The notes under the pieces were generated by a model, which worked only from the letters and a program-made list of their open reading frames with translations, was not told the DNA's origin and did not search any database. Below are positions 13,405 to 41,340 of a stretch of 42,016 nucleotides of DNA, one piece after another. Every line of letters starts with the position of its first letter. Position 1 is the first letter of the stretch. A program made the position numbers and the translations under genes. Source of the stretch: a virus; the IMG/VR virus record IMGVR_UViG_3300037240_000034, positions 1 through 42,016 of that record; one strand, given 5' to 3'.

Positions 13405-16400
13405 GTGGCGGACCCCCAGCTTCCAATTGTCAGCGTGGATGAAGCGAATAATGGGGGCTATAGCGCCACCCCGCCGCCTGCTGTATCCGCCCCTCAGCCT
13501 ATTAGCGCCGACGACGCCAACAGCGGAGACTATACCGCTGCCCCGCCGGCACCAGCCCCGCAAGCTATTAGCGCCGATGAAGCGAATAAGGGGGACTATA
13601 GCGCCACCCCGCCGCCTGCTGCGCCGGCCCCACAAGCCATTAGTGCCGATGAGGCCAACAGCGGAGCATATAGTGCCCTACCACCAGCCCAAGGTGAAAC
13701 CGAAACCGCCCTGCGACGTGGCCTTCATGAAGCCCCTGCGGCTTTTGGCTCAATTCCAGCGATGGTGGCTGGCGCGGCGCAAGGTACAGAATGGGGTCTG
13801 GCTGCTGCGCCCTTTCTTGGCCCTCTTGCACCTGCTGCTCCGATTGTTGGCGGTATTGCTGGTGGTTTTGCTGCTGGTGGCATCGCTGGCTATGTCCTAC
13901 AAAAGGCATCGAACCTTATCCAAACGGCCTTGGGGGTTGACGAAAGCGCTCAACTAGAAGCAAACAAGGAAGCAAACCCCACGTCTGATGTGGTTGGCGG
14001 CGTCTTACCGTGGCTTGCCACAGGCCGGCCCAGTATGCAACTCGCGTTGAAGACCCGCCTGCCTATGGCCGCTGCTGGTGCCGGGTTCTCGGCGTTGCAG
14101 CAAGAGGCTCAAACTGGGCACATTGATCCGACAGAAGTCGCTGCCAATGCCGCCGTGATGGGGCTTACGGACAAGCCCTGGGGCATTGGGAAGCCACTGG
14201 CTGCGCTAGGTGAACGGTTCTCTGTACCGCCGCGGGCCGCTATTGGAGTGTCTGAAAGTCCGCCTCCACCATCCCAAACTGCGGACGTGGGCAATGACAC
14301 CAGCCCACCTATACGTGACCAAGGTAACAAGGGTACATATGCCAAGAAACCTGAGCCTACTGAAGGCTCTAAGTCCATGGCAACCCTCGATCCAGCCACC
14401 GGGCTAGACGAAGCAACCTTGGGGGTTCTTGACAAGTCCCTTGAAGCTTCTGCCTTGAAGCCACCAAGCGGCGATAAGCCATCTATTACGACACAACGTA
14501 AGCCTGGAGTTGACATGGAGGCAGCGGCCCGGGCGGCTGAGCAAATGCCAGCGCCGGCGGCTGAACCCCCGCCGGCTGGTCAATCCCCAATTTCAGATCG
14601 CCTGCCTACGCTTGACGCACAACACGCTCAGGACATTGCAGCAACCACTGATGCAAAAGCCCAAGCCGAAGCGTTGCAAAACATCAAGGCTAAACAGGCC
14701 GGACACGACCAACCTCTTACGCCTGCGGAAGAAGCTGCTCCTGAACGGGCCGCCGCGCCAGCTACGAACCCCAATTTGCGAACGGTTCAATGGACCGATC
14801 CGCATTTACAAGGTCTCAGGGTCGAAACCGCGGACCTTGGCGACAAGCTTAGCCAAATGAGCCCGGACGGTAAGACCTTGCAACTATCCGCCAAGGTGCC
14901 AGAGAGCATCCAGGTAGGCGATAAGACCTTGAACCCGGCAGAACCCCTGGCCGTGCGTGAACGCGCTACACAGTTAGGTACGGAAAAGGGGCTCAGCCTT
15001 GACGACGCCACCAATAAGGTCGGCATTCCATCAGAGAACGACTGGTTGAAACAGAAGGGTTATGACCCAGCTGCCTATCAAAAAACCATGGACGGCCTGC
15101 GAACGGGTGAAACCGCGCCGCCAGCGGCCCAGGCAGCGATTGAAGCTGGGCCAACCAAGGCGGCACTAAGGGTGCAAGCACGACAAGAAGCCGAGGCTCG
15201 CGCCGCTGCTGATACTATTCCGCTTCAAACCAAGCCTACCAGCGTGCAGCCGGCGAACCGGGTGCGGCCTGTTGTAGATATGGGCATGGGCGAACCGGCG
15301 GCGCAGGAGGCCCCAGCAAAAGTGGTGCCAGGGAAGGACGCTGCCCAGAAATTGCTGGATGCGCGTACCGATCTGCCCCAGGATACTCGCCAACGTATGC
15401 AGGATGTTATCGAAAGTGATAACATCCCGGGTATCCGGGCTGTTCTTACCCAAATGCGGAATAAGGCCAACCGGACCACGCTAGAAGGCTCGGGGGTCCA
15501 GGTCGCTCCGGAGGACGCGGCGGCAAAGCAGAGGGCAATCGACGTATCGACGGCGGCAATTAATGCCTTCCCAGATAAGTCCAATCGGCCAGCGACCACA
15601 CCTTCCGAGATAGCCGCCCTGCGGGTTCGCGTACAAAATATGCTCGACCATGCAACGGCGGCAAATGGGGGGACAAGCCCCCTCGATGCATATAAGGCCC
15701 GCGAGAAGCCCGCAGCATGGGAACTGCTGCGCGAGGCCCACAATATGCTCCAAACCAAAACTACAACGCCAGAGCAAGCGCTGGAGTTTAGTACAAATGA
15801 AACACTCGCTCGCGGCGCATTGAAGGATGACCCAAATGCCACCAACACCCTGGGAACTCGCCGCATTGAAAGCGATATTAGCTTCAAGGGAAACCCTGAA
15901 GAAGCCGTCCCGCAGGAAACCCTTACCGAAGCGAGGGAGCGGTCGGAAGCGGAAGTCGAGAAAAACCTCACCGCCGACATGCAAGACCTAGGTAAGACCC
16001 ACGACCTATCGACCGCTGCGGGGCGCGACCAAATACAGACGGATACCGAAAAGGTAGTCCCCAATCTGATTGCGGCCATTGACAAGAAGGCAGCCGCAGC
16101 CCGGTGGGATCGTAGTGCTGAAGAACTGGCTGAAAAGAACCCGCGGGTCAGGGAGGCAGCGTCGCTCGTAAAGCGCGGCTCTCCCGATGCCCCTCTGCCC
16201 GAGCCACAAAGCGGTACAGGGCGGTCTATCCCCCTCACTGATGATGTAATCAAGGCAGCCCTGGCCTCTGCCGACAAGGTGAAAGCCCGCACGGATAAGG
16301 CCGCCTATCGCCCTAATGCTGAAACGATTGATAGTCCCGACGCCCTACGACTGAAGGACCTTCCTAGTAAGTTTCTGGGGGACGAGGCAGGATCGCTCAA

Positions 16401-19131
16401 TACCGACCGTATTCACGCCGACCTAAAGACAAAAGCCGATATGTTCCGCAGGTTATCCAGCGAGTGGTTTGGGGCAACATGGAACGACCCGCAGCGCATA
16501 GCCAAGTCTATTATGACAAAGATGCTGACCCACGGCGACGTTATGAAGACCGATGGGCGCGAGATGTTCGACGCTACATGGCACGAAATAGATAAAACAT
16601 CAACGCCGAAAGAGTTTTTCGGGTTCCTCGACGCCATGGAGAAGACCGCAGCCTATACCGAACCATTATCGGGTGTAGGGCCGCGCCCAATTAATAAGGC
16701 AGAGTTGCTCGATCAGCTTGGTAAGAGCGGGGTTGCGCCGGACCGCGCGCCCCTTCTGGCCGATATGGCCCCCCTGTTCCGTGAGCCTCTGGACCAAATG
16801 TTTCGGGAGGACCTTAAATACGGTAGCACCGCCGAGTACATCAAGACATATGTTCCCCACTTTTTTGGCAATACAAAAGTGAATGGTATGTCAGTAGAAA
16901 AGTGGATACTGGCACGCAACGCGGCGCGAACCCCAACTGTTGGGTCAACCACGTTCCAGCAAGAGCGGGTGTTTGATACTGTGCAGGCGGCGTTAGCCCA
17001 TGGGTTTAAGCTCCGCTATGAAAGCATAGCCGATTTGCTTGGAGCCCGCTATGCAGCGTCAGTAGACTTCCACATGCTGATCGGCAGCCTGCGAAAACTA
17101 GAAGAATATGGGCTAGCAGTACCCGAGATGGATGCTAGTGGTGCCCAAAAAAATTGGCCTAATACCGACGGCAAACAATATATCGCGCCGGATCATAACA
17201 CCTGGTTTATCCACGCCGATGGCGTACCCTCATTTGAGAACGCAGTGGCGAATACCGGCTTACGAAACGCCCCCAATGTCGGCGGCTCTATGTACCGGTT
17301 TTGGTTGAAAGCCAAAGCGGTATGGGTTCCTATAGAACTGATCTTTACCGCGTTCCATCCGGTCCACGTCCTCGGCATTAACCTAGCGGAAAACCTTACA
17401 GGGGCCATGCATGAAGGGTTTAACTCACCGGGTGAGGCATACACACAGATCAAGACGGCGTTAAAAAATTCGGCTACGCAACCGTTTCTTATGCTTCCCC
17501 TTGACAAAATGCCACTGGGACTAGGTGAAAAGTATGCCCAGACCAAGATGGGGACAGCACAAGAAGCTGCTAAAAATAGCCAAATGGTGCAGTGGTGGAA
17601 AAAACCTGAGGCCGACCGTACCCCTGCGGAAAAACGGTGGCAGGCACTAGCCGAGTCCGCGGGTATGCTCCGAGAACAGCCCCCCGCTGAACGTATTATA
17701 GCGGATAGGGTATTATCGAATGCGTGGGATCGAGGCGAGTACCCGACTGCTGCGTTAGCGCTTGGCCGAGTGGCCCTACAAAAAGCGTCCGCCGGTATGT
17801 TTACGAACTGGATACCTGACTTAAAAATGGCCGCGTTTCAAAACGCGGCGGCGAGGGCACTGAGGATGGACCCAGACTTACTCAGCGATAGCCGAAGGCG
17901 CGACTCTGTAATGCGGATGATCGGTAGTAATATTCATTCACGCTATGGTGAAATGAATTACAAGTCCATGCTCTGGAAACCCATTGCACGCGATGTAGGC
18001 GTAGGTAGCTTCTTGTCCCTAAGCTGGCAGTTAGGGATGGTCAACCAGCTGGCGGGGGCGGCGCGAAACCTTATCATGCGGGCTGGTGGCAAAACGATGG
18101 AGCAGGCTGGCACGTATCTGCACGACGCTACCCTGGAAGCAGCAGGGAAAGAGCGGCAAGGGACGAGCCTGCAACAGACGCTATATAAACACTCCAACAG
18201 CGGTACCTATGTGATGACTTATGTTGCCACTAGCCTACTGTTTGGGGGTGCCTTGAGCTATATGCTTAGTGGGAAACCACCAAAAGGCCTTGACTATTCG
18301 TATCCGCAAAACGGAAACACCAATCCAGACGGCTCCCCCGGCAGATACACACTGCCGTTCAATACCCGGGAAGGGCCGATGTTACAAAGCCACGTCACTG
18401 AGTCGGACTCAGTGGTGAAGGGGTTTAGCCAGCTTCTCTACAATAAGCTGATTATACAGCCTATTGTCGAGGCCTTCCAGAACAAGGATAGCTTGGGAAA
18501 CGAAATGTACAGTGTTCATGCGTCCCCCTTCATGACAGCATTGCAACTTGCTGACAGTGAATTAGGTAGACATTTTAGCCCTATCTCGATTACAAACGCC
18601 AATCGGTCCAAACAGCTAGGCGGGGGTACCAAAGATACTATTGCCGCCTATTTAGGCGCAGCGCCAGCGCCGGCTTATGTCAACCGGCCCGGTTTAGATG
18701 GCCAGATTATGAACTTGTATCGGGAACATAGCGCCCCCTCGGAGCGGCCCTATGAAATCAGCGGGACCGGGCTCGTAAAGAGCATCTTTGGTGGGAAAAA
18801 TATTGCTCAACAGCGACAAGACGCGCGAAACGCTAAGTTCCAGGCTATCCAAAGTGGTGATAAAGTCGCTGAACAAAAGGCAAACGAGGCGCTCCGTAGC
18901 ACCGGCGAGGGCAACAATGCGATCCGTAATCAACGGCCCGGGTCTGATATACCATTCTTTTTCAGCCAGCTGCCTATTACTGACCAGGCAATCCTTACCA
19001 AGCAGCTGGCCCAGGATACAAAGGATGGCAGAGCCCAATTCAACCGCCTCGTCATCACCAACCGTGGCATTCACGGGAAGGTGAAACGGCAGCTTCGGGA
19101 AGAGTTTGATAAAGAAAGCGTTAACCAATAG
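13405..19131 (+). CDS. Giant virion-associated (large polyvalent-like) protein, 1908 aa
   Basis: Starts at GTG 13405 with AGAGGGAT upstream. Residues 5-95 hold four copies of a repeat with core ISADEAN-x-GDYSATPPP. A Gly/Ala-rich membrane-like stretch follows (about 125-170: FLGPLAPAAPIVGGIAGGFA). Near residues 280-315 is the GVSES-PPPSQTADVGN module also found in the 700-aa protein. The middle is Ala/Glu/Lys-rich and helical. The last about 650 residues (LIFTAFHPVHVLGINLAENL, MLRQ-type helices, AAYLGAAPAPAYVNRPG) resemble the C-terminal LPD38-type domain of large polyvalent phage proteins. No catalytic domain is seen. Likely ejected with the DNA; families inferred by eye. Confidence 0.75.
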   Translation: MADPQLPIVSVDEANNGGYSATPPPAVSAPQPISADDANSGDYTAAPPAPAPQAISADEANKGDYSATPPPAAPAPQAISADEANSGAYSALPPAQGETETALRRGLHEAPAAFGSIPAMVAGAAQGTEWGLAAAPFLGPLAPAAPIVGGIAGGFAAGGIAGYVLQKASNLIQTALGVDESAQLEANKEANPTSDVVGGVLPWLATGRPSMQLALKTRLPMAAAGAGFSALQQEAQTGHIDPTEVAANAAVMGLTDKPWGIGKPLAALGERFSVPPRAAIGVSESPPPPSQTADVGNDTSPPIRDQGNKGTYAKKPEPTEGSKSMATLDPATGLDEATLGVLDKSLEASALKPPSGDKPSITTQRKPGVDMEAAARAAEQMPAPAAEPPPAGQSPISDRLPTLDAQHAQDIAATTDAKAQAEALQNIKAKQAGHDQPLTPAEEAAPERAAAPATNPNLRTVQWTDPHLQGLRVETADLGDKLSQMSPDGKTLQLSAKVPESIQVGDKTLNPAEPLAVRERATQLGTEKGLSLDDATNKVGIPSENDWLKQKGYDPAAYQKTMDGLRTGETAPPAAQAAIEAGPTKAALRVQARQEAEARAAADTIPLQTKPTSVQPANRVRPVVDMGMGEPAAQEAPAKVVPGKDAAQKLLDARTDLPQDTRQRMQDVIESDNIPGIRAVLTQMRNKANRTTLEGSGVQVAPEDAAAKQRAIDVSTAAINAFPDKSNRPATTPSEIAALRVRVQNMLDHATAANGGTSPLDAYKAREKPAAWELLREAHNMLQTKTTTPEQALEFSTNETLARGALKDDPNATNTLGTRRIESDISFKGNPEEAVPQETLTEARERSEAEVEKNLTADMQDLGKTHDLSTAAGRDQIQTDTEKVVPNLIAAIDKKAAAARWDRSAEELAEKNPRVREAASLVKRGSPDAPLPEPQSGTGRSIPLTDDVIKAALASADKVKARTDKAAYRPNAETIDSPDALRLKDLPSKFLGDEAGSLNTDRIHADLKTKADMFRRLSSEWFGATWNDPQRIAKSIMTKMLTHGDVMKTDGREMFDATWHEIDKTSTPKEFFGFLDAMEKTAAYTEPLSGVGPRPINKAELLDQLGKSGVAPDRAPLLADMAPLFREPLDQMFREDLKYGSTAEYIKTYVPHFFGNTKVNGMSVEKWILARNAARTPTVGSTTFQQERVFDTVQAALAHGFKLRYESIADLLGARYAASVDFHMLIGSLRKLEEYGLAVPEMDASGAQKNWPNTDGKQYIAPDHNTWFIHADGVPSFENAVANTGLRNAPNVGGSMYRFWLKAKAVWVPIELIFTAFHPVHVLGINLAENLTGAMHEGFNSPGEAYTQIKTALKNSATQPFLMLPLDKMPLGLGEKYAQTKMGTAQEAAKNSQMVQWWKKPEADRTPAEKRWQALAESAGMLREQPPAERIIADRVLSNAWDRGEYPTAALALGRVALQKASAGMFTNWIPDLKMAAFQNAAARALRMDPDLLSDSRRRDSVMRMIGSNIHSRYGEMNYKSMLWKPIARDVGVGSFLSLSWQLGMVNQLAGAARNLIMRAGGKTMEQAGTYLHDATLEAAGKERQGTSLQQTLYKHSNSGTYVMTYVATSLLFGGALSYMLSGKPPKGLDYSYPQNGNTNPDGSPGRYTLPFNTREGPMLQSHVTESDSVVKGFSQLLYNKLIIQPIVEAFQNKDSLGNEMYSVHASPFMTALQLADSELGRHFSPISITNANRSKQLGGGTKDTIAAYLGAAPAPAYVNRPGLDGQIMNLYREHSAPSERPYEISGTGLVKSIFGGKNIAQQRQDARNAKFQAIQSGDKVAEQKANEALRSTGEGNNAIRNQRPGSDIPFFFSQLPITDQAILTKQLAQDTKDGRAQFNRLVITNRGIHGKVKRQLREEFDKESVNQ

Positions 19132-28207: not shown

Positions 28208-28347
28208 GATAGGTCCAACCACGTTAGACCAAGATAGCCAACGCCAAACCCGGCATAGGCAAGGGCGGCCGGCTGCCGGCCGCCCATCATGGAGAGAGTG
28301 GCAGCCAGCCAGCACAGCGCGACGATCATCAGGTTAAGTTGCCACAT
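28204..28347 (-). CDS. Small two-helix membrane protein
   Basis: 47 aa from ATG 28347. Two hydrophobic stretches (LNLMIVALCWLAATLSM and ALAYAGFGVGYLGLTWL) are linked by GGRQP. It overlaps the upstream gene by 14 nt, and its stop overlaps the nuclease start. The SD is weak, so translation probably depends on coupling. Function unknown. Confidence 0.55.
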   Translation of the reverse strand: MWQLNLMIVALCWLAATLSMMGGRQPAALAYAGFGVGYLGLTWLDLS

Positions 28348-28657
28348 GGGTCTGCTCTTTATCTGCTTCAATCTCAATCTGAAGCAACGCGAGGGCTCGC
28401 CACGCAAGCTGGGCGCTATGGCGAACCTTCGTCACTTCATCTATCGTACCGCGCTCCACCAGGTGCCGGCCAATACAGTCGGCATGGTCGGCGGATTTCT
28501 CGCGGGACCAATGAAGCGGCTGCCCGGGGTTGTGCTTCTCGTTTCCGACAAACGAAACCTCTGCGACCGCCGCCAGTGCGTCCGGGAAGTAATCGACTAG
28601 CCCGGTGACGATGGGTATGCGTTTGCGGGCAGCGCTATCGGTGGGTAAACTAGACAT
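28334..28657 (-). CDS. dATP/dGTP pyrophosphohydrolase-like protein (DUF5664)
   Basis: 107 aa from ATG 28657, with TTGGAGATTTTCT upstream. The sequence carries the whole family signature: RIPIVTGLVDYFPDALAAVA, SFVGNEKHNPGQPLHW, REKSADHADCIGRHLVERG and HSAQLAWRALALLQIE. Related proteins are MazG-like all-helical enzymes converting dGTP or dATP to the monophosphate; in Z-genome phages such enzymes feed or support 2-aminoadenine synthesis. No adenylosuccinate synthetase-like PurZ is visible in this window, so a role in base replacement is unproven; dNTP pool control is the simpler reading. Confidence 0.8.
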   Translation of the reverse strand: MSSLPTDSAARKRIPIVTGLVDYFPDALAAVAEVSFVGNEKHNPGQPLHWSREKSADHADCIGRHLVERGTIDEVTKVRHSAQLAWRALALLQIEIEADKEQTHVAT

Positions 28658-28970
28658 AGAAAATCTCCAATCCAATGGCTTCAGCAGCAGCTTTTTCCGC
28701 TTTAGCCCCCTTACTTTTTTTCCATCCTGGCATGAGGGCAACTGCATCCGCGTGTTTACATATCCAGGCAAGATCAAGCGCAAAAACCCGCCGTCGAAAG
28801 GAAACATCTTCCTGTAACCCGGGGGCGAGCTTCAGATGCTTTTCGATCCCCTTCTCGGCGGGACTAAACACATCATACCCCTGCTTCCGTAGCTTCTTAG
28901 CATACTTATGGAACGCGGGGAAGTTGAACTTCGGTACCCCCCGCATGGGGCCGGCTAGGTAGACCTTCAT
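28650..28970 (-). CDS. DUF4406 / nucleoside 2-deoxyribosyltransferase-like protein
   Basis: 106 aa; GGAG lies 8 nt before ATG 28970. MKVYLAGPMRGVPKFNFPAF is the hallmark opening; YDVFSPAEKG and ADAVALMPGWKKSKGAKAEK-x2-AEAIGLEI match the rest of the family. Relatives swap bases on deoxynucleosides or hydrolyse nucleotides; DUF4406 members are mostly uncharacterised. It overlaps the dATP/dGTP pyrophosphohydrolase by 8 nt, so the pair probably acts on the nucleotide pool together. Confidence 0.85.
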   Translation of the reverse strand: MKVYLAGPMRGVPKFNFPAFHKYAKKLRKQGYDVFSPAEKGIEKHLKLAPGLQEDVSFRRRVFALDLAWICKHADAVALMPGWKKSKGAKAEKAAAEAIGLEIFYV

Positions 28971-31437: not shown

Positions 31438-31663
31438 GGCCATTATCTCCGCAAACACGACTAACATCTGCACCAGGTTGGCAGGCAGAGTAAAACCTCT
31501 CTGCCTGAAAATAGGGGCTATCGTCGTCCAACATACACGCCAAGGAAGCACACGTATGCAGCCACAACTTTTCCGCTGTACCCGATAGCGGTGTTTCGTC
31601 ATGAACCCGTTGCATCATAGCAGCAAGCTGGCGGTATGCCGTGCGAGTGAACATACGTGGCAT
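31424..31663 (-). CDS. Hypothetical small protein
   Basis: 79 aa; AGGGAG lies 10 nt before ATG 31663, which itself overlaps the upstream stop (TAATG). Mostly helical (YRQLAAMMQRVHDETPL, AEKLWLHTCASLACMLDDD). No known domain. The coupled start and the overlap with the next gene support expression. Confidence 0.65.
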   Translation of the reverse strand: MPRMFTRTAYRQLAAMMQRVHDETPLSGTAEKLWLHTCASLACMLDDDSPYFQAERFYSACQPGADVSRVCGDNGHDGI

Positions 31664-31854
31664 TAGGGTAGTCTCCCTTCGCTTTGGTTAGGCATAATCA
31701 TCTCGCCTATCCACCATTCAGTGTGGTGTGAACAATGTCGCTCCGCGTAGATGGAGGCTTTGGAGTGACTACGAAACGGCCCCATAAAGACAAAGCCGTC
31801 AACTGGGTTGCCAGTAATCAAGAGATACTGGCCTATTTCAATATCTTTTGGCAT
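31663..31854 (-). CDS. Hypothetical small protein after the tRNA repeat region
   Basis: 63 aa from ATG 31854, with CGGAGGTTTAAT upstream. The sequence MPKDIEIGQYLLITGNPVDG...GPFRSHSKASIYAERH is a compact, probably beta-rich protein with no known family. It follows directly on the first copy of the 87-bp repeat; part of that copy (the GGAG of its SD lies at the boundary) serves as its leader. Confidence 0.65.
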   Translation of the reverse strand: MPKDIEIGQYLLITGNPVDGFVFMGPFRSHSKASIYAERHCSHHTEWWIGEMIMPNQSEGRLP

Positions 31855-31863
31855 ATTAAACCT

Positions 31864-31950
31864 CCGATTTCCATACTGTCTTATGAACAATTTGATGAAC
31901 CATTTGTTGGCATATGCATGCTCGATAGGACATATAATTGGCGCCGCGGC
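31864..31950. repeat. 87-bp direct repeat, copy 1
   Basis: Identical to 32143-32229 except for one base (G versus T in the AATTTGATG/AATTTTATG stretch). Its right end is GGCGCCGCGGC, the sequence that in copy 2 forms the 3' acceptor end of the tRNA. The copies are spaced 279 bp apart, start to start. Confidence 0.95.
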
Positions 31951-32140
31951 GGCCAAGAACGGCACCGAGAAGGCGGCTGAAGGTGCTGCTGGTGAGGTTG
32001 GCAACAAAGTGGAAAGTCAGCGAACGGTGACAGTAGACTTCACCGCTGAACAAGTTCTTGATGTTGCACCGGTACAAGTAATTGATGTCGAAAGTGTTGA
32101 GGTCGACCCCGAGTTGGATGCACTCTTGGAGATCGAGTGA
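31883..32140 (+). CDS. Small plus-strand ORF enclosed by the tRNA-linked repeat
   Basis: 85 aa from ATG 31883 (or 31895); no SD is visible. The first about 23 residues, encoded by repeat copy 1, form a hydrophobic segment (MNHLLAYACSIGHIIGAAAA). The rest, encoded by the 192-bp insert, is acidic and Val/Glu-rich (FTAEQVLDVAPVQVIDVESV). It runs opposite to all neighbours for 7 kb on either side. Copy 2 restarts the same peptide but ends after 25 residues. It may be an inserted gene, a chance ORF, or a fragment of a structural gene. VLDVAPVQV resembles VLEVAPARV in the holin-like protein. Confidence 0.4.
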   Translation: MNNLMNHLLAYACSIGHIIGAAAAKNGTEKAAEGAAGEVGNKVESQRTVTVDFTAEQVLDVAPVQVIDVESVEVDPELDALLEIE

Positions 32141-32142
32141 TG

Positions 32143-32229
32143 CCGATTTCCATACTGTCTTATGAACAATTTTATGAACCATTTGTTGGCATATGCATGC
32201 TCGATAGGACATATAATTGGCGCCGCGGC
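32143..32229. repeat. 87-bp direct repeat, copy 2, overlapping the tRNA 3' end
   Basis: One mismatch to 31864-31950. Its right 12 nt (32218-32229) are the tRNA CCA end, discriminator and acceptor strand. On the minus strand it is the sequence immediately downstream of the tRNA. Confidence 0.95.
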
Positions 32230-32294
32230 TTGGATTTGAACCAAGGTCTTTGCCCTGAGGGGGGCAACGTGCTAGGCCTCTACACCAACGCGGC
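32218..32294 (-). tRNA. tRNA, Glu-like, with an 8-nt anticodon loop
   Basis: Read on the minus strand: acceptor GCCGCGT/CCGCGGC with one mismatch at the last pair, D arm GTG-TAGAGGCCTAG-CAC, anticodon stem TTGCC/GGCAA, T arm CTTGG-TTCAAAT-CCAAG, discriminator G, and encoded CCA. The D loop and discriminator resemble tRNA-Glu, suggesting anticodon CTC, but the anticodon loop is CCCCTCAG, eight bases instead of seven, and lacks the usual U33. The gene could be degenerate, or an unusual decoder. The 77-nt length is otherwise normal. Confidence 0.72.
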
Positions 32295-37584: not shown

Positions 37585-38352
37585 TCACCGCCCTCCTTGC
37601 TTCTTGATTGCGTCTAACACCATTTTATCGAGCATCTTTGATTGGGCACTCCAGGCGACCCTCCGGGCGGCACTCCAGGCGGCACTCCAGGCGACCCTCC
37701 GGGTGGCACTCCGGGCGGCACTATAGGCGGCACTATAGGCGGCACTCTCGGCGGCACTCCAGGCGGCACTCCAGGCGACCTTCCAGGCGGCACTCCAGGC
37801 GACCTTCCAGGCGGCACTCCGGGCGGCACTATAGGCGGCACTATAGGCGGCACTCTCGGCGGCACTCCAGGCGACCCTCCGGGTGGCACTCCAGGCGACC
37901 CTCCGGATGGCACTCCGGGCGGCACTCCGGGCGGCACTCCTTAAACTTTCGTCTCCGCTCTCAAGATAGTCTTGAACAACTTGCGGGCATTTCCACAGAT
38001 GAATAACCTGTAGCGCGCACTTTCTCGCAAACTCGCGGAGAATAAGTTCGGCGTCTACGCGGGCCAAATACTTTCGTGATGTGGCGACAGATTTATCGTC
38101 GCCATGAATGATTTTTCCACCGAGTTGCACTCGGAACAGAATGTTTCCTGGCGCATAATTAAGCGCCTCGCGCACGATCTTTGAGGCATGAAGTCCCAGC
38201 TTGCAGAGAATTGGGGTGCAATCGACCTTGTGCGTTGTGCCTACTTCAATCTTACGACCGTCACCGAAACGAAGCGTTTCCGTTTCGTTGGCAAAGTGCC
38301 AGCCAAGCCAAGCTTTACGCTTACTGATCTTTTTCTTAATCGGGCGCTTCAT
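37585..38352 (-). CDS. DUF7666-like protein with Ala/Ser/Trp repeat tail
   Basis: 255 aa from ATG 38352 (ATGA overlap with the upstream gene). Residues 1-130 resemble DUF7666: WLGWHFANETETLRFGDGRK, a KVDC...CKLGLHAS signature (GLHAS is the core motif) and ILFRVQLGGKIIHGDDKSVA. From about residue 135 to 240 a tail of five-residue-like units (SAARS, AAWKV, SAAES, AAYS) repeats more than 20 times, probably one long amphipathic helix or solenoid. Such AWSAAW tails occur in phage proteins of unknown function. The repeats are encoded by near-identical 12-15-nt DNA units. The last 15 residues (KMLDKMVLDAIKKQGG) cap it. Confidence 0.75.
   Translation of the reverse strand: MKRPIKKKISKRKAWLGWHFANETETLRFGDGRKIEVGTTHKVDCTPILCKLGLHASKIVREALNYAPGNILFRVQLGGKIIHGDDKSVATSRKYLARVDAELILREFARKCALQVIHLWKCPQVVQDYLESGDESLRSAARSAARSAIRRVAWSATRRVAWSAAESAAYSAAYSAARSAAWKVAWSAAWKVAWSAAWSAAESAAYSAAYSAARSATRRVAWSAAWSAARRVAWSAQSKMLDKMVLDAIKKQGGR
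37650..37940. repeat. Dense tandem GGCGGCACTCC-type repeats
   Basis: About 290 bp of short in-frame units, GGCGGCACTCC, GGCGGCACTATA and GGCGACCCTCC variants, in irregular order. A longer block (ACTATAGGCGGCACTATAGG and flanks) occurs twice, near 37718 and 37828, showing segmental duplication. They encode the Ala/Ser/Trp/Tyr tail above. There are no unique spacers, so this is not a CRISPR array. Confidence 0.9.
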
Positions 38353-38750
38353 TTTGCTAGCTCCTGTGCAAAGCGATGATACTTGACTTCTTGATGTGGG
38401 CGCAATTTGCGCCAATTACCCATACCAAATGGCAGGAACCCAAATCGCTTATAATAGGGATCAAGTTCCCTGAAGTTGGTGAAGAGTTGGGCAGCAAGCC
38501 CAAATCGGTCACATAGCTCACAAAACTCGCGCAATGCTATAGCACCGTTACCTTTGGGGGCTGGCGTTAGGCCAGCATCGTTCCAATAGCGTTCGCCTCG
38601 CCGGCCAAATGACCCAAAGTAGAGATGGTCGCCAAATGGTCCCCATCCCTCTCTGAAGCGGAACGACCAACGTACGCCCAATTCGGCTTCGTGGGCGGCA
38701 TGTAGCCGCTCGAACCGCTTTTGGCGATATTTGTTCCATAGGGCTTTCAT
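38349..38750 (-). CDS. GNAT-like protein
   Basis: 133 aa; ATG 38750 overlaps the upstream tiny ORF. The C-terminal half has ALREFCELCDRFGLAAQLF and ELDPYYKRFGFLPFG; the last is the classic end of the GNAT acetyltransferase fold. The N-terminal half (WNKYRQKRFERLHAAHEAEL, FGDHLYFGSFGRRG) is less clear, and the acetyl-CoA loop is not obvious. Possibly a GNAT relative without acetyltransferase activity. Confidence 0.55.
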   Translation of the reverse strand: MKALWNKYRQKRFERLHAAHEAELGVRWSFRFREGWGPFGDHLYFGSFGRRGERYWNDAGLTPAPKGNGAIALREFCELCDRFGLAAQLFTNFRELDPYYKRFGFLPFGMGNWRKLRPHQEVKYHRFAQELAK

Positions 38751-41263: not shown

Positions 41264-41340
41264 CAGGGTGTAGCGCAGTCTGGTAGCGCGCCTGGCCTGG
41301 GACCAGGAGGCCGTAGGTTCAAATCCTACCGCCCCGACCA
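41264..41340 (+). tRNA. tRNA-Pro (anticodon UGG)
   Basis: 77 nt with encoded CCA. D arm GCGC-AGTCTGGTA-GCGC, anticodon stem CCTGG/CCAGG, loop CCTGGGA with anticodon TGG, T arm GTAGG-TTCAAAT-CCTAC, C1-G72 and discriminator A as in tRNA-Pro. There is an A-C mismatch at the second acceptor pair, and position 33 is C, where U is almost universal. It begins right after the stop of the 57-aa gene, so it must be cut from an mRNA. Confidence 0.9.

What the first reader, a model, noticed from the sequence alone, without database searches (positions are those of the whole stretch)
31864..32294. 87-bp direct repeat at a phage tRNA 3' end enclosing a plus-strand mini-ORF
Two 87-bp copies with one mismatch lie 279 bp apart. 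Each ends with the 12 nt that form the tRNA acceptor end, but only the second is followed by a full tRNA. This is the layout expected when a small element integrates at the 3' end of a tRNA and restores it, yet the inserted unit is only 279 bp, keeps reading frame, and carries a small ORF (TM-like start plus acidic tail) opposite to all neighbours. It could be a minimal mobile cassette, a trace of recombination, or a duplicated gene start.
Basis: partly seen in the sequence, partly recalled or inferred. Interest (0 to 1): 0.78.

Follow-up and report, generated by a model that had tools for sequence, protein, structure and literature searches.

The report
Phage scar patched with rival's DNA
A short stretch beside a phage tRNA gene holds two scraps copied from a different phage, spliced in between two copies of the same 87 bases; it looks like a botched DNA copying or repair event frozen in the genome, not a tiny mobile element.

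Summary
The repeat is real: two 87-bp copies (R; 31864-31950 and 32143-32229) with one mismatch, 279 bp apart, the second running 12 nt into an intact minus-strand tRNA gene. The 192 bp between the copies are two unrelated patches from another phage (contig L037, relatives L038-L040). Patch A (31945-31993, 49/49 identical) is from a 64-aa gene just upstream of the portal gene. Patch B (31994-32144, 149/151) is the 3' end of that phage's small-terminase gene, through its stop codon. In L037 the two sources lie 5.2 kb apart, in the opposite order. The joins overlap by 6, 0 and 2 nt. No integrase or resolvase was found, and R, A and B were found nowhere else searched. Best reading: a templated insertion. 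A copying or repair event left the phage template at the end of R, copied two pieces of a second phage's DNA, and re-entered 87 bp back, duplicating R and leaving both tRNA and downstream gene intact. The 85-aa plus-strand ORF is an in-frame fusion, but random L037 pieces keep that frame open about 20% of the time, so function is not indicated. A laboratory chimera cannot be excluded without reads.

The parts
31864..31950 (.). R1: first copy of the 87-bp repeat; leader of the minus-strand 63-aa gene
   Evidence: one mismatch to R2 (31894 G / 32173 T)
31945..31993 (+). Patch A: 49 nt identical to L037:7663-7711 (64-aa gene upstream of the portal gene), also in L038, L039 and L040; its first 6 nt overlap the end of R1
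31994..32144 (+). Patch B: 149/151 nt identical to L037:2317-2467, the 3' end of the small-terminase gene with its stop codon; its last 2 nt overlap the start of R2
32143..32229 (.). R2: second copy of the 87-bp repeat; its last 12 nt are the 3' end of the tRNA
32218..32294 (-). tRNA gene left intact by the insertion; the 18-nt anticodon arm gives an 8-nt loop CCCCUCAG on a 5-bp stem (or a 6-nt loop on a 6-bp stem)
   Evidence: arm read by eye
31883..32140 (+). 85-aa chimeric ORF (R1 chance frame + patch A frame + TerS C-terminal tail); no ribosome-binding site; probably not a gene
   Evidence: frames match both donor genes; about 20% of random L037 pieces also keep it open
31663..31854 (-). 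63-aa downstream gene whose leader (R) and GGAGG ribosome-binding site remain intact

Best explanation
This is a templated (filler-DNA) insertion made by illegitimate recombination between two phages. Shown: on the + strand the order is R1, 43 bp unique to patch A, 149 bp unique to patch B, R2, tRNA; A and B match two places 5.2 kb apart in an L037-type phage. Inferred: during replication or repair of this phage's genome in a cell that also held L037-type DNA, a growing or broken end left its template at the end of R, primed on 6 nt of shared sequence in the small gene upstream of the portal gene, moved to the end of terS, and returned to its own genome 87 bp back (2-nt overlap), so R was copied twice. 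Equivalently, a staggered break was filled in and short foreign fragments were joined between the ends. Because the return point lies behind the exit point, the tRNA and the leader of the 63-aa gene both stay whole; this alone gives the look of tRNA 3'-end integration. The mini-ORF is a by-product.
For: Near-identity of A (49/49) and B (149/151) to two distant places in L037. Close members of that group differ from L037 by about 1.7%, so B's 1.3% fits a donor of the same species. The two phages otherwise share only a lysis cassette at about 43-84% amino-acid identity plus one short weak match, which argues against common descent; no other 24-mer of the window occurs in any fetched locus. B is found only in L037 and A only in L037-L040 among 2.9 million viral contigs. 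Junction overlaps are 6, 0 and 2 nt; a maximum of at least 6 over three random joins has p = 0.005. The joins are too short for a false de Bruijn-graph join (inference). No integrase or resolvase. The phage encodes a family-A polymerase, a PD-(D/E)XK nuclease and an SNF2-type helicase.
Against: One join has no microhomology. No empty-site genome was found, so the ancestral state is inferred. The contig is incomplete (no TerL), so the phage could carry an L037-like packaging module itself, making the event intragenomic. An amplification chimera would look similar.
Confidence: 0.68

Rival explanations
1. Laboratory chimera: the joins were made in vitro by template switching during whole-genome or library amplification of a sample holding both phages, and were then assembled into the contig.
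For: Over 70% of MDA chimeric junctions start at 2-21 nt of complementarity (PMC1855051), like two of the three joins here. The donor match is near-identical, as expected for co-sampled DNA.
Against: Three joins within 200 bp, all in direct orientation; in that study 85% of MDA chimeras were inversions. Random ligation would have to pick two overlapping fragments of the same locus out of a metagenome. A rare chimera should lose to the uninterrupted path in assembly (inference).
Confidence: 0.2
2. Minimal mobile cassette integrated site-specifically at the tRNA 3' end, with R as attL/attR.
For: The layout fits: the full tRNA is restored on one side and a tRNA-end copy lies on the other.
Against: The insert is two unrelated scraps of another phage's genes; 75 of 87 repeated bases lie outside the tRNA; no integrase or resolvase in the record; R and the unit are absent elsewhere; R shows no unusual fold.
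Confidence: 0.03
3. Selected gene fusion: the chimeric ORF is kept because a rival's TerS tail interferes with the rival's packaging.
For: A and B are both sense-strand and in their native frames, and the fusion ends at the native TerS stop.
Against: About 20% of random L037 pieces keep the frame open; no ribosome-binding site; antisense to its neighbours; no family match.
Confidence: 0.04
4. Intragenomic copy: the phage's own, unassembled packaging region is L037-like, and A and B were copied from it.
For: The record lacks TerL and has no end repeats, so its packaging module is unseen.
Against: Shared lysis genes are only about 43-84% identical in protein, and gene order around them differs between the window and L037.
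Confidence: 0.08

Closest known systems
Illegitimate recombination proposed to underlie phage mosaicism (discussed in PMC2327257)
   Same: Joins between unrelated phage sequences with little or no homology
   Different: Usual cases exchange modules or genes at two flanks; here two sub-gene scraps of 43 and 149 bp were added and 87 bp of the recipient was duplicated
Templated insertions by microhomology-mediated template switching (FoSTeS/MMBIR class; own knowledge)
   Same: Short segments copied from elsewhere, joined by a few nt, with duplication of the flank where synthesis re-enters
   Different: Described mainly in chromosomes of cells; here the templates come from another phage; enzymes unknown
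Short-patch double illegitimate recombination in Acinetobacter baylyi (own knowledge; the paper was not found in the library)
   Same: Short heterologous DNA pieces placed into a genome at microhomologies
   Different: That process replaces local sequence; here sequence is inserted with a duplication
MDA amplification chimeras (PMC1855051)
   Same: Template switching at 2-21 nt of complementarity
   Different: Mostly inversions; here all joins are direct and return to the starting locus
Integrative elements at tRNA 3' ends (tyrosine-integrase type; own knowledge)
   Same: A tRNA restored on one side and a copy of its 3' end on the other
   Different: No integrase; insert is chimeric; the repeat lies mostly outside the tRNA

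Membership tests
Templated insertion by template switching | Inserted sequence matches distant templates | tested here: met
   A 49/49 and B 149/151 to L037
Templated insertion by template switching | Short microhomology at joins | tested here: inconclusive
   6, 0 and 2 nt; P(max at least 6 in three joins) = 0.005, but one join is blunt
Templated insertion by template switching | Duplication of the flank at re-entry | tested here: met
   87-bp R1/R2 with one mismatch
Templated insertion by template switching | Produced by replication or repair enzymes in vivo | not testable with these tools
   Needs raw reads or culture
tRNA 3'-end integrative element | Site-specific recombinase encoded by the element or available in the phage | tested here: not met
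   PF00589 and PF00239 absent from the window; the record is incomplete
tRNA 3'-end integrative element | att core lying mainly in the tRNA 3' part | tested here: not met
   12 nt inside the tRNA, 75 nt outside
tRNA 3'-end integrative element | Insert is a coherent element found at other sites | tested here: not met
   Two scraps of another phage's genes; B only in L037, A only in L037-L040, in their home genes
Integron-type gene cassette | Repeat folds as an attC-like hairpin | tested here: not met
   R folds no better than shuffles, z = -0.24 and -0.07
MDA or library chimera | Joins absent from unamplified DNA | not testable with these tools
   No reads available

The most novel reading that the evidence does not exclude
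The phage captured the tail of a competitor's small terminase and expresses it, fused to a short hydrophobic leader, as a decoy that disturbs the competitor's DNA packaging: a gene born by template switching from a rival's genome.
Probability: 0.04. Interest if true: 0.75.

Novelty: new member of a known kind. Interest (0 to 1): 0.36.

Why it matters
If made in the phage, it is an unusually readable record of a single phage-phage illegitimate event: donor group, both template positions, all three joins and the point of return can be named to the base. It shows how unlinked sub-gene scraps from a co-infecting phage can be added to a genome without harming neighbours, and how such an event can imitate tRNA-end integration. 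It also warns that a tRNA-end direct repeat alone does not prove a mobile element.

Tried and rejected
Site-specific integration at the tRNA: rejected for lack of an integrase and because of the chimeric insert. Simple tandem duplication of a 279-bp unit: rejected, because sequence outside R on either side does not resemble the insert. Integron-like cassette: R does not fold specially. Antisense gene under selection: the open frame is expected in about 20% of random L037 chimeras (the ORF start used was off by one base and that part is void). De Bruijn assembly false join: overlaps of 0-6 nt are far below assembler k-mers (inference). Empty-site search: exact R pattern, flanking-gene searches and direct search of 13 related records gave none. 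DNA searches of reference phages and of plasmids with the insert, and protein searches of phages and GTDB genomes, found nothing. Idea that B is itself an exchangeable terS module: rejected, because L043 terS shares the start and end of that tail in place.

Full report
Observation. The window is a 42,016-bp IMG/VR record without terminal repeats of 20 nt or more and without a detectable large terminase, so it is probably an incomplete phage genome. Two 87-bp direct repeats, R1 31864-31950 and R2 32143-32229, differ at one base and start 279 bp apart. R2 runs 12 nt into the 3' end of a minus-strand tRNA gene at 32218-32294. R1 is the leader of a 63-aa minus-strand gene (31663-31854).

What lies between the repeats. 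A search with the 85-aa plus-strand ORF brought in four viral contigs. Nucleotide comparison shows that the insert is a join of two patches. Patch A, 31945-31993, is identical over 49 nt to L037:7663-7711 and to the same place in L038, L039 and L040, inside a 64-aa gene just upstream of the portal-type (head-tail adaptor, phrog_332) gene. Patch B, 31994-32144, matches L037:2317-2467 at 149 of 151 nt: the last 48 codons of the small-terminase gene (phrog_51; weak PF03592 match) and its stop. In L037 the order is B then A, 5.2 kb apart, on the same strand; here it is A then B. L037 and L038-L040 are about 98% identical to one another over most of their overlap, so one donor species explains both patches. 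The window phage shares little more than a lysis cassette with that group, at about 43-84% protein identity, and an exact 24-mer scan against all fetched loci found no other shared stretch. The patches are therefore recently transferred, not inherited, unless the unseen part of this phage is itself L037-like.

The joins. R1/A share 6 nt, A/B none, B/R2 2 nt. A 6-nt overlap in any of three random joins between these sequences has p = 0.005. Joins of this size cannot come from k-mer collisions in assembly; they need chimeric DNA molecules, natural or made in the laboratory (inference).

Why it looks like tRNA-end integration. If synthesis leaves the phage genome at the end of R, copies A and B, and re-enters 87 bp behind the exit point, R is copied twice and nothing on either side is lost. 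The tRNA keeps its whole sequence, and the downstream gene keeps its leader and ribosome-binding site. No integrase is needed and none was found. The repeat lies mostly outside the tRNA, unlike the usual tRNA att core.

The mini-ORF. It keeps the native frames of both donor genes, which at first suggests selection. But replacing A and B by random L037 pieces leaves an ORF at least as long in 20% of trials, there is no ribosome-binding site before ATG 31883, and no family matches. Both differences from L037 in B change amino acids (D to N, P to Q). I regard it as a by-product.

Natural or laboratory made. MDA chimeras also prime at 2-21 nt of complementarity (PMC1855051), but 85% of them are inversions, whereas here three joins in 200 bp are all direct and return to the starting locus. 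Random ligation of fragments would have to bring together two overlapping pieces of one locus. A natural event is favoured, but only reads can settle it.

Limits. The insert was not found in reference phages, plasmids or GTDB genomes.

Noticed in passing
32218-32294 (-): The tRNA next to the scar has an 18-nt anticodon arm (UUGCC CCCCUCAG GGCAA), i.e. an 8-nt loop (or a 6-nt loop on a 6-bp stem) with C where U33 is expected. The body looks Glu-like to me by eye; ARAGORN cannot assign it. It may be a frameshift-suppressor-like or decayed tRNA, or a miscounted run of C.
   Followed up: partly
L038:1040-1631, L040:1-204, L037:4284-4402: Just after terL, L038 carries a recombination endonuclease VII-like gene (PF02945) and a more diverged terL end; L040 keeps only the gene's 3' remnant joined abruptly to an L037-like terL end; L037 has none. 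Another variable illegitimate-join site in the donor group.
   Followed up: partly
37585-38415 (-): 276-aa protein with a long array of degenerate SAA(R/W/Y) repeats, with exact DNA repeats at spacings of 24, 84, 108 and 180 bp.
   Followed up: no
28334-28807 (-): dATP/dGTP diphosphohydrolase-like N-terminal domain (PF18909) beside a family-A DNA polymerase, a set that recalls phages with 2-aminoadenine DNA; no PurZ (PF00709) was found in this incomplete record.
   Followed up: partly
41264-41340 (+): A second phage tRNA, tRNA-Pro (UGG), regular by Rfam (59.8 bits).
   Followed up: no
13405-19131 (+): 1908-aa ORF in the structural region without any PHROGs match; probably a large internal virion protein.
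   Followed up: no
L037:1825-2463 versus L043:8001-8579: The C-terminal tail of TerS varies in length: L037 TerS is 20 residues longer than that of L043 (212 versus 192 aa), the extra lying between a shared start and a shared VDPELDAL end.
   Followed up: partly
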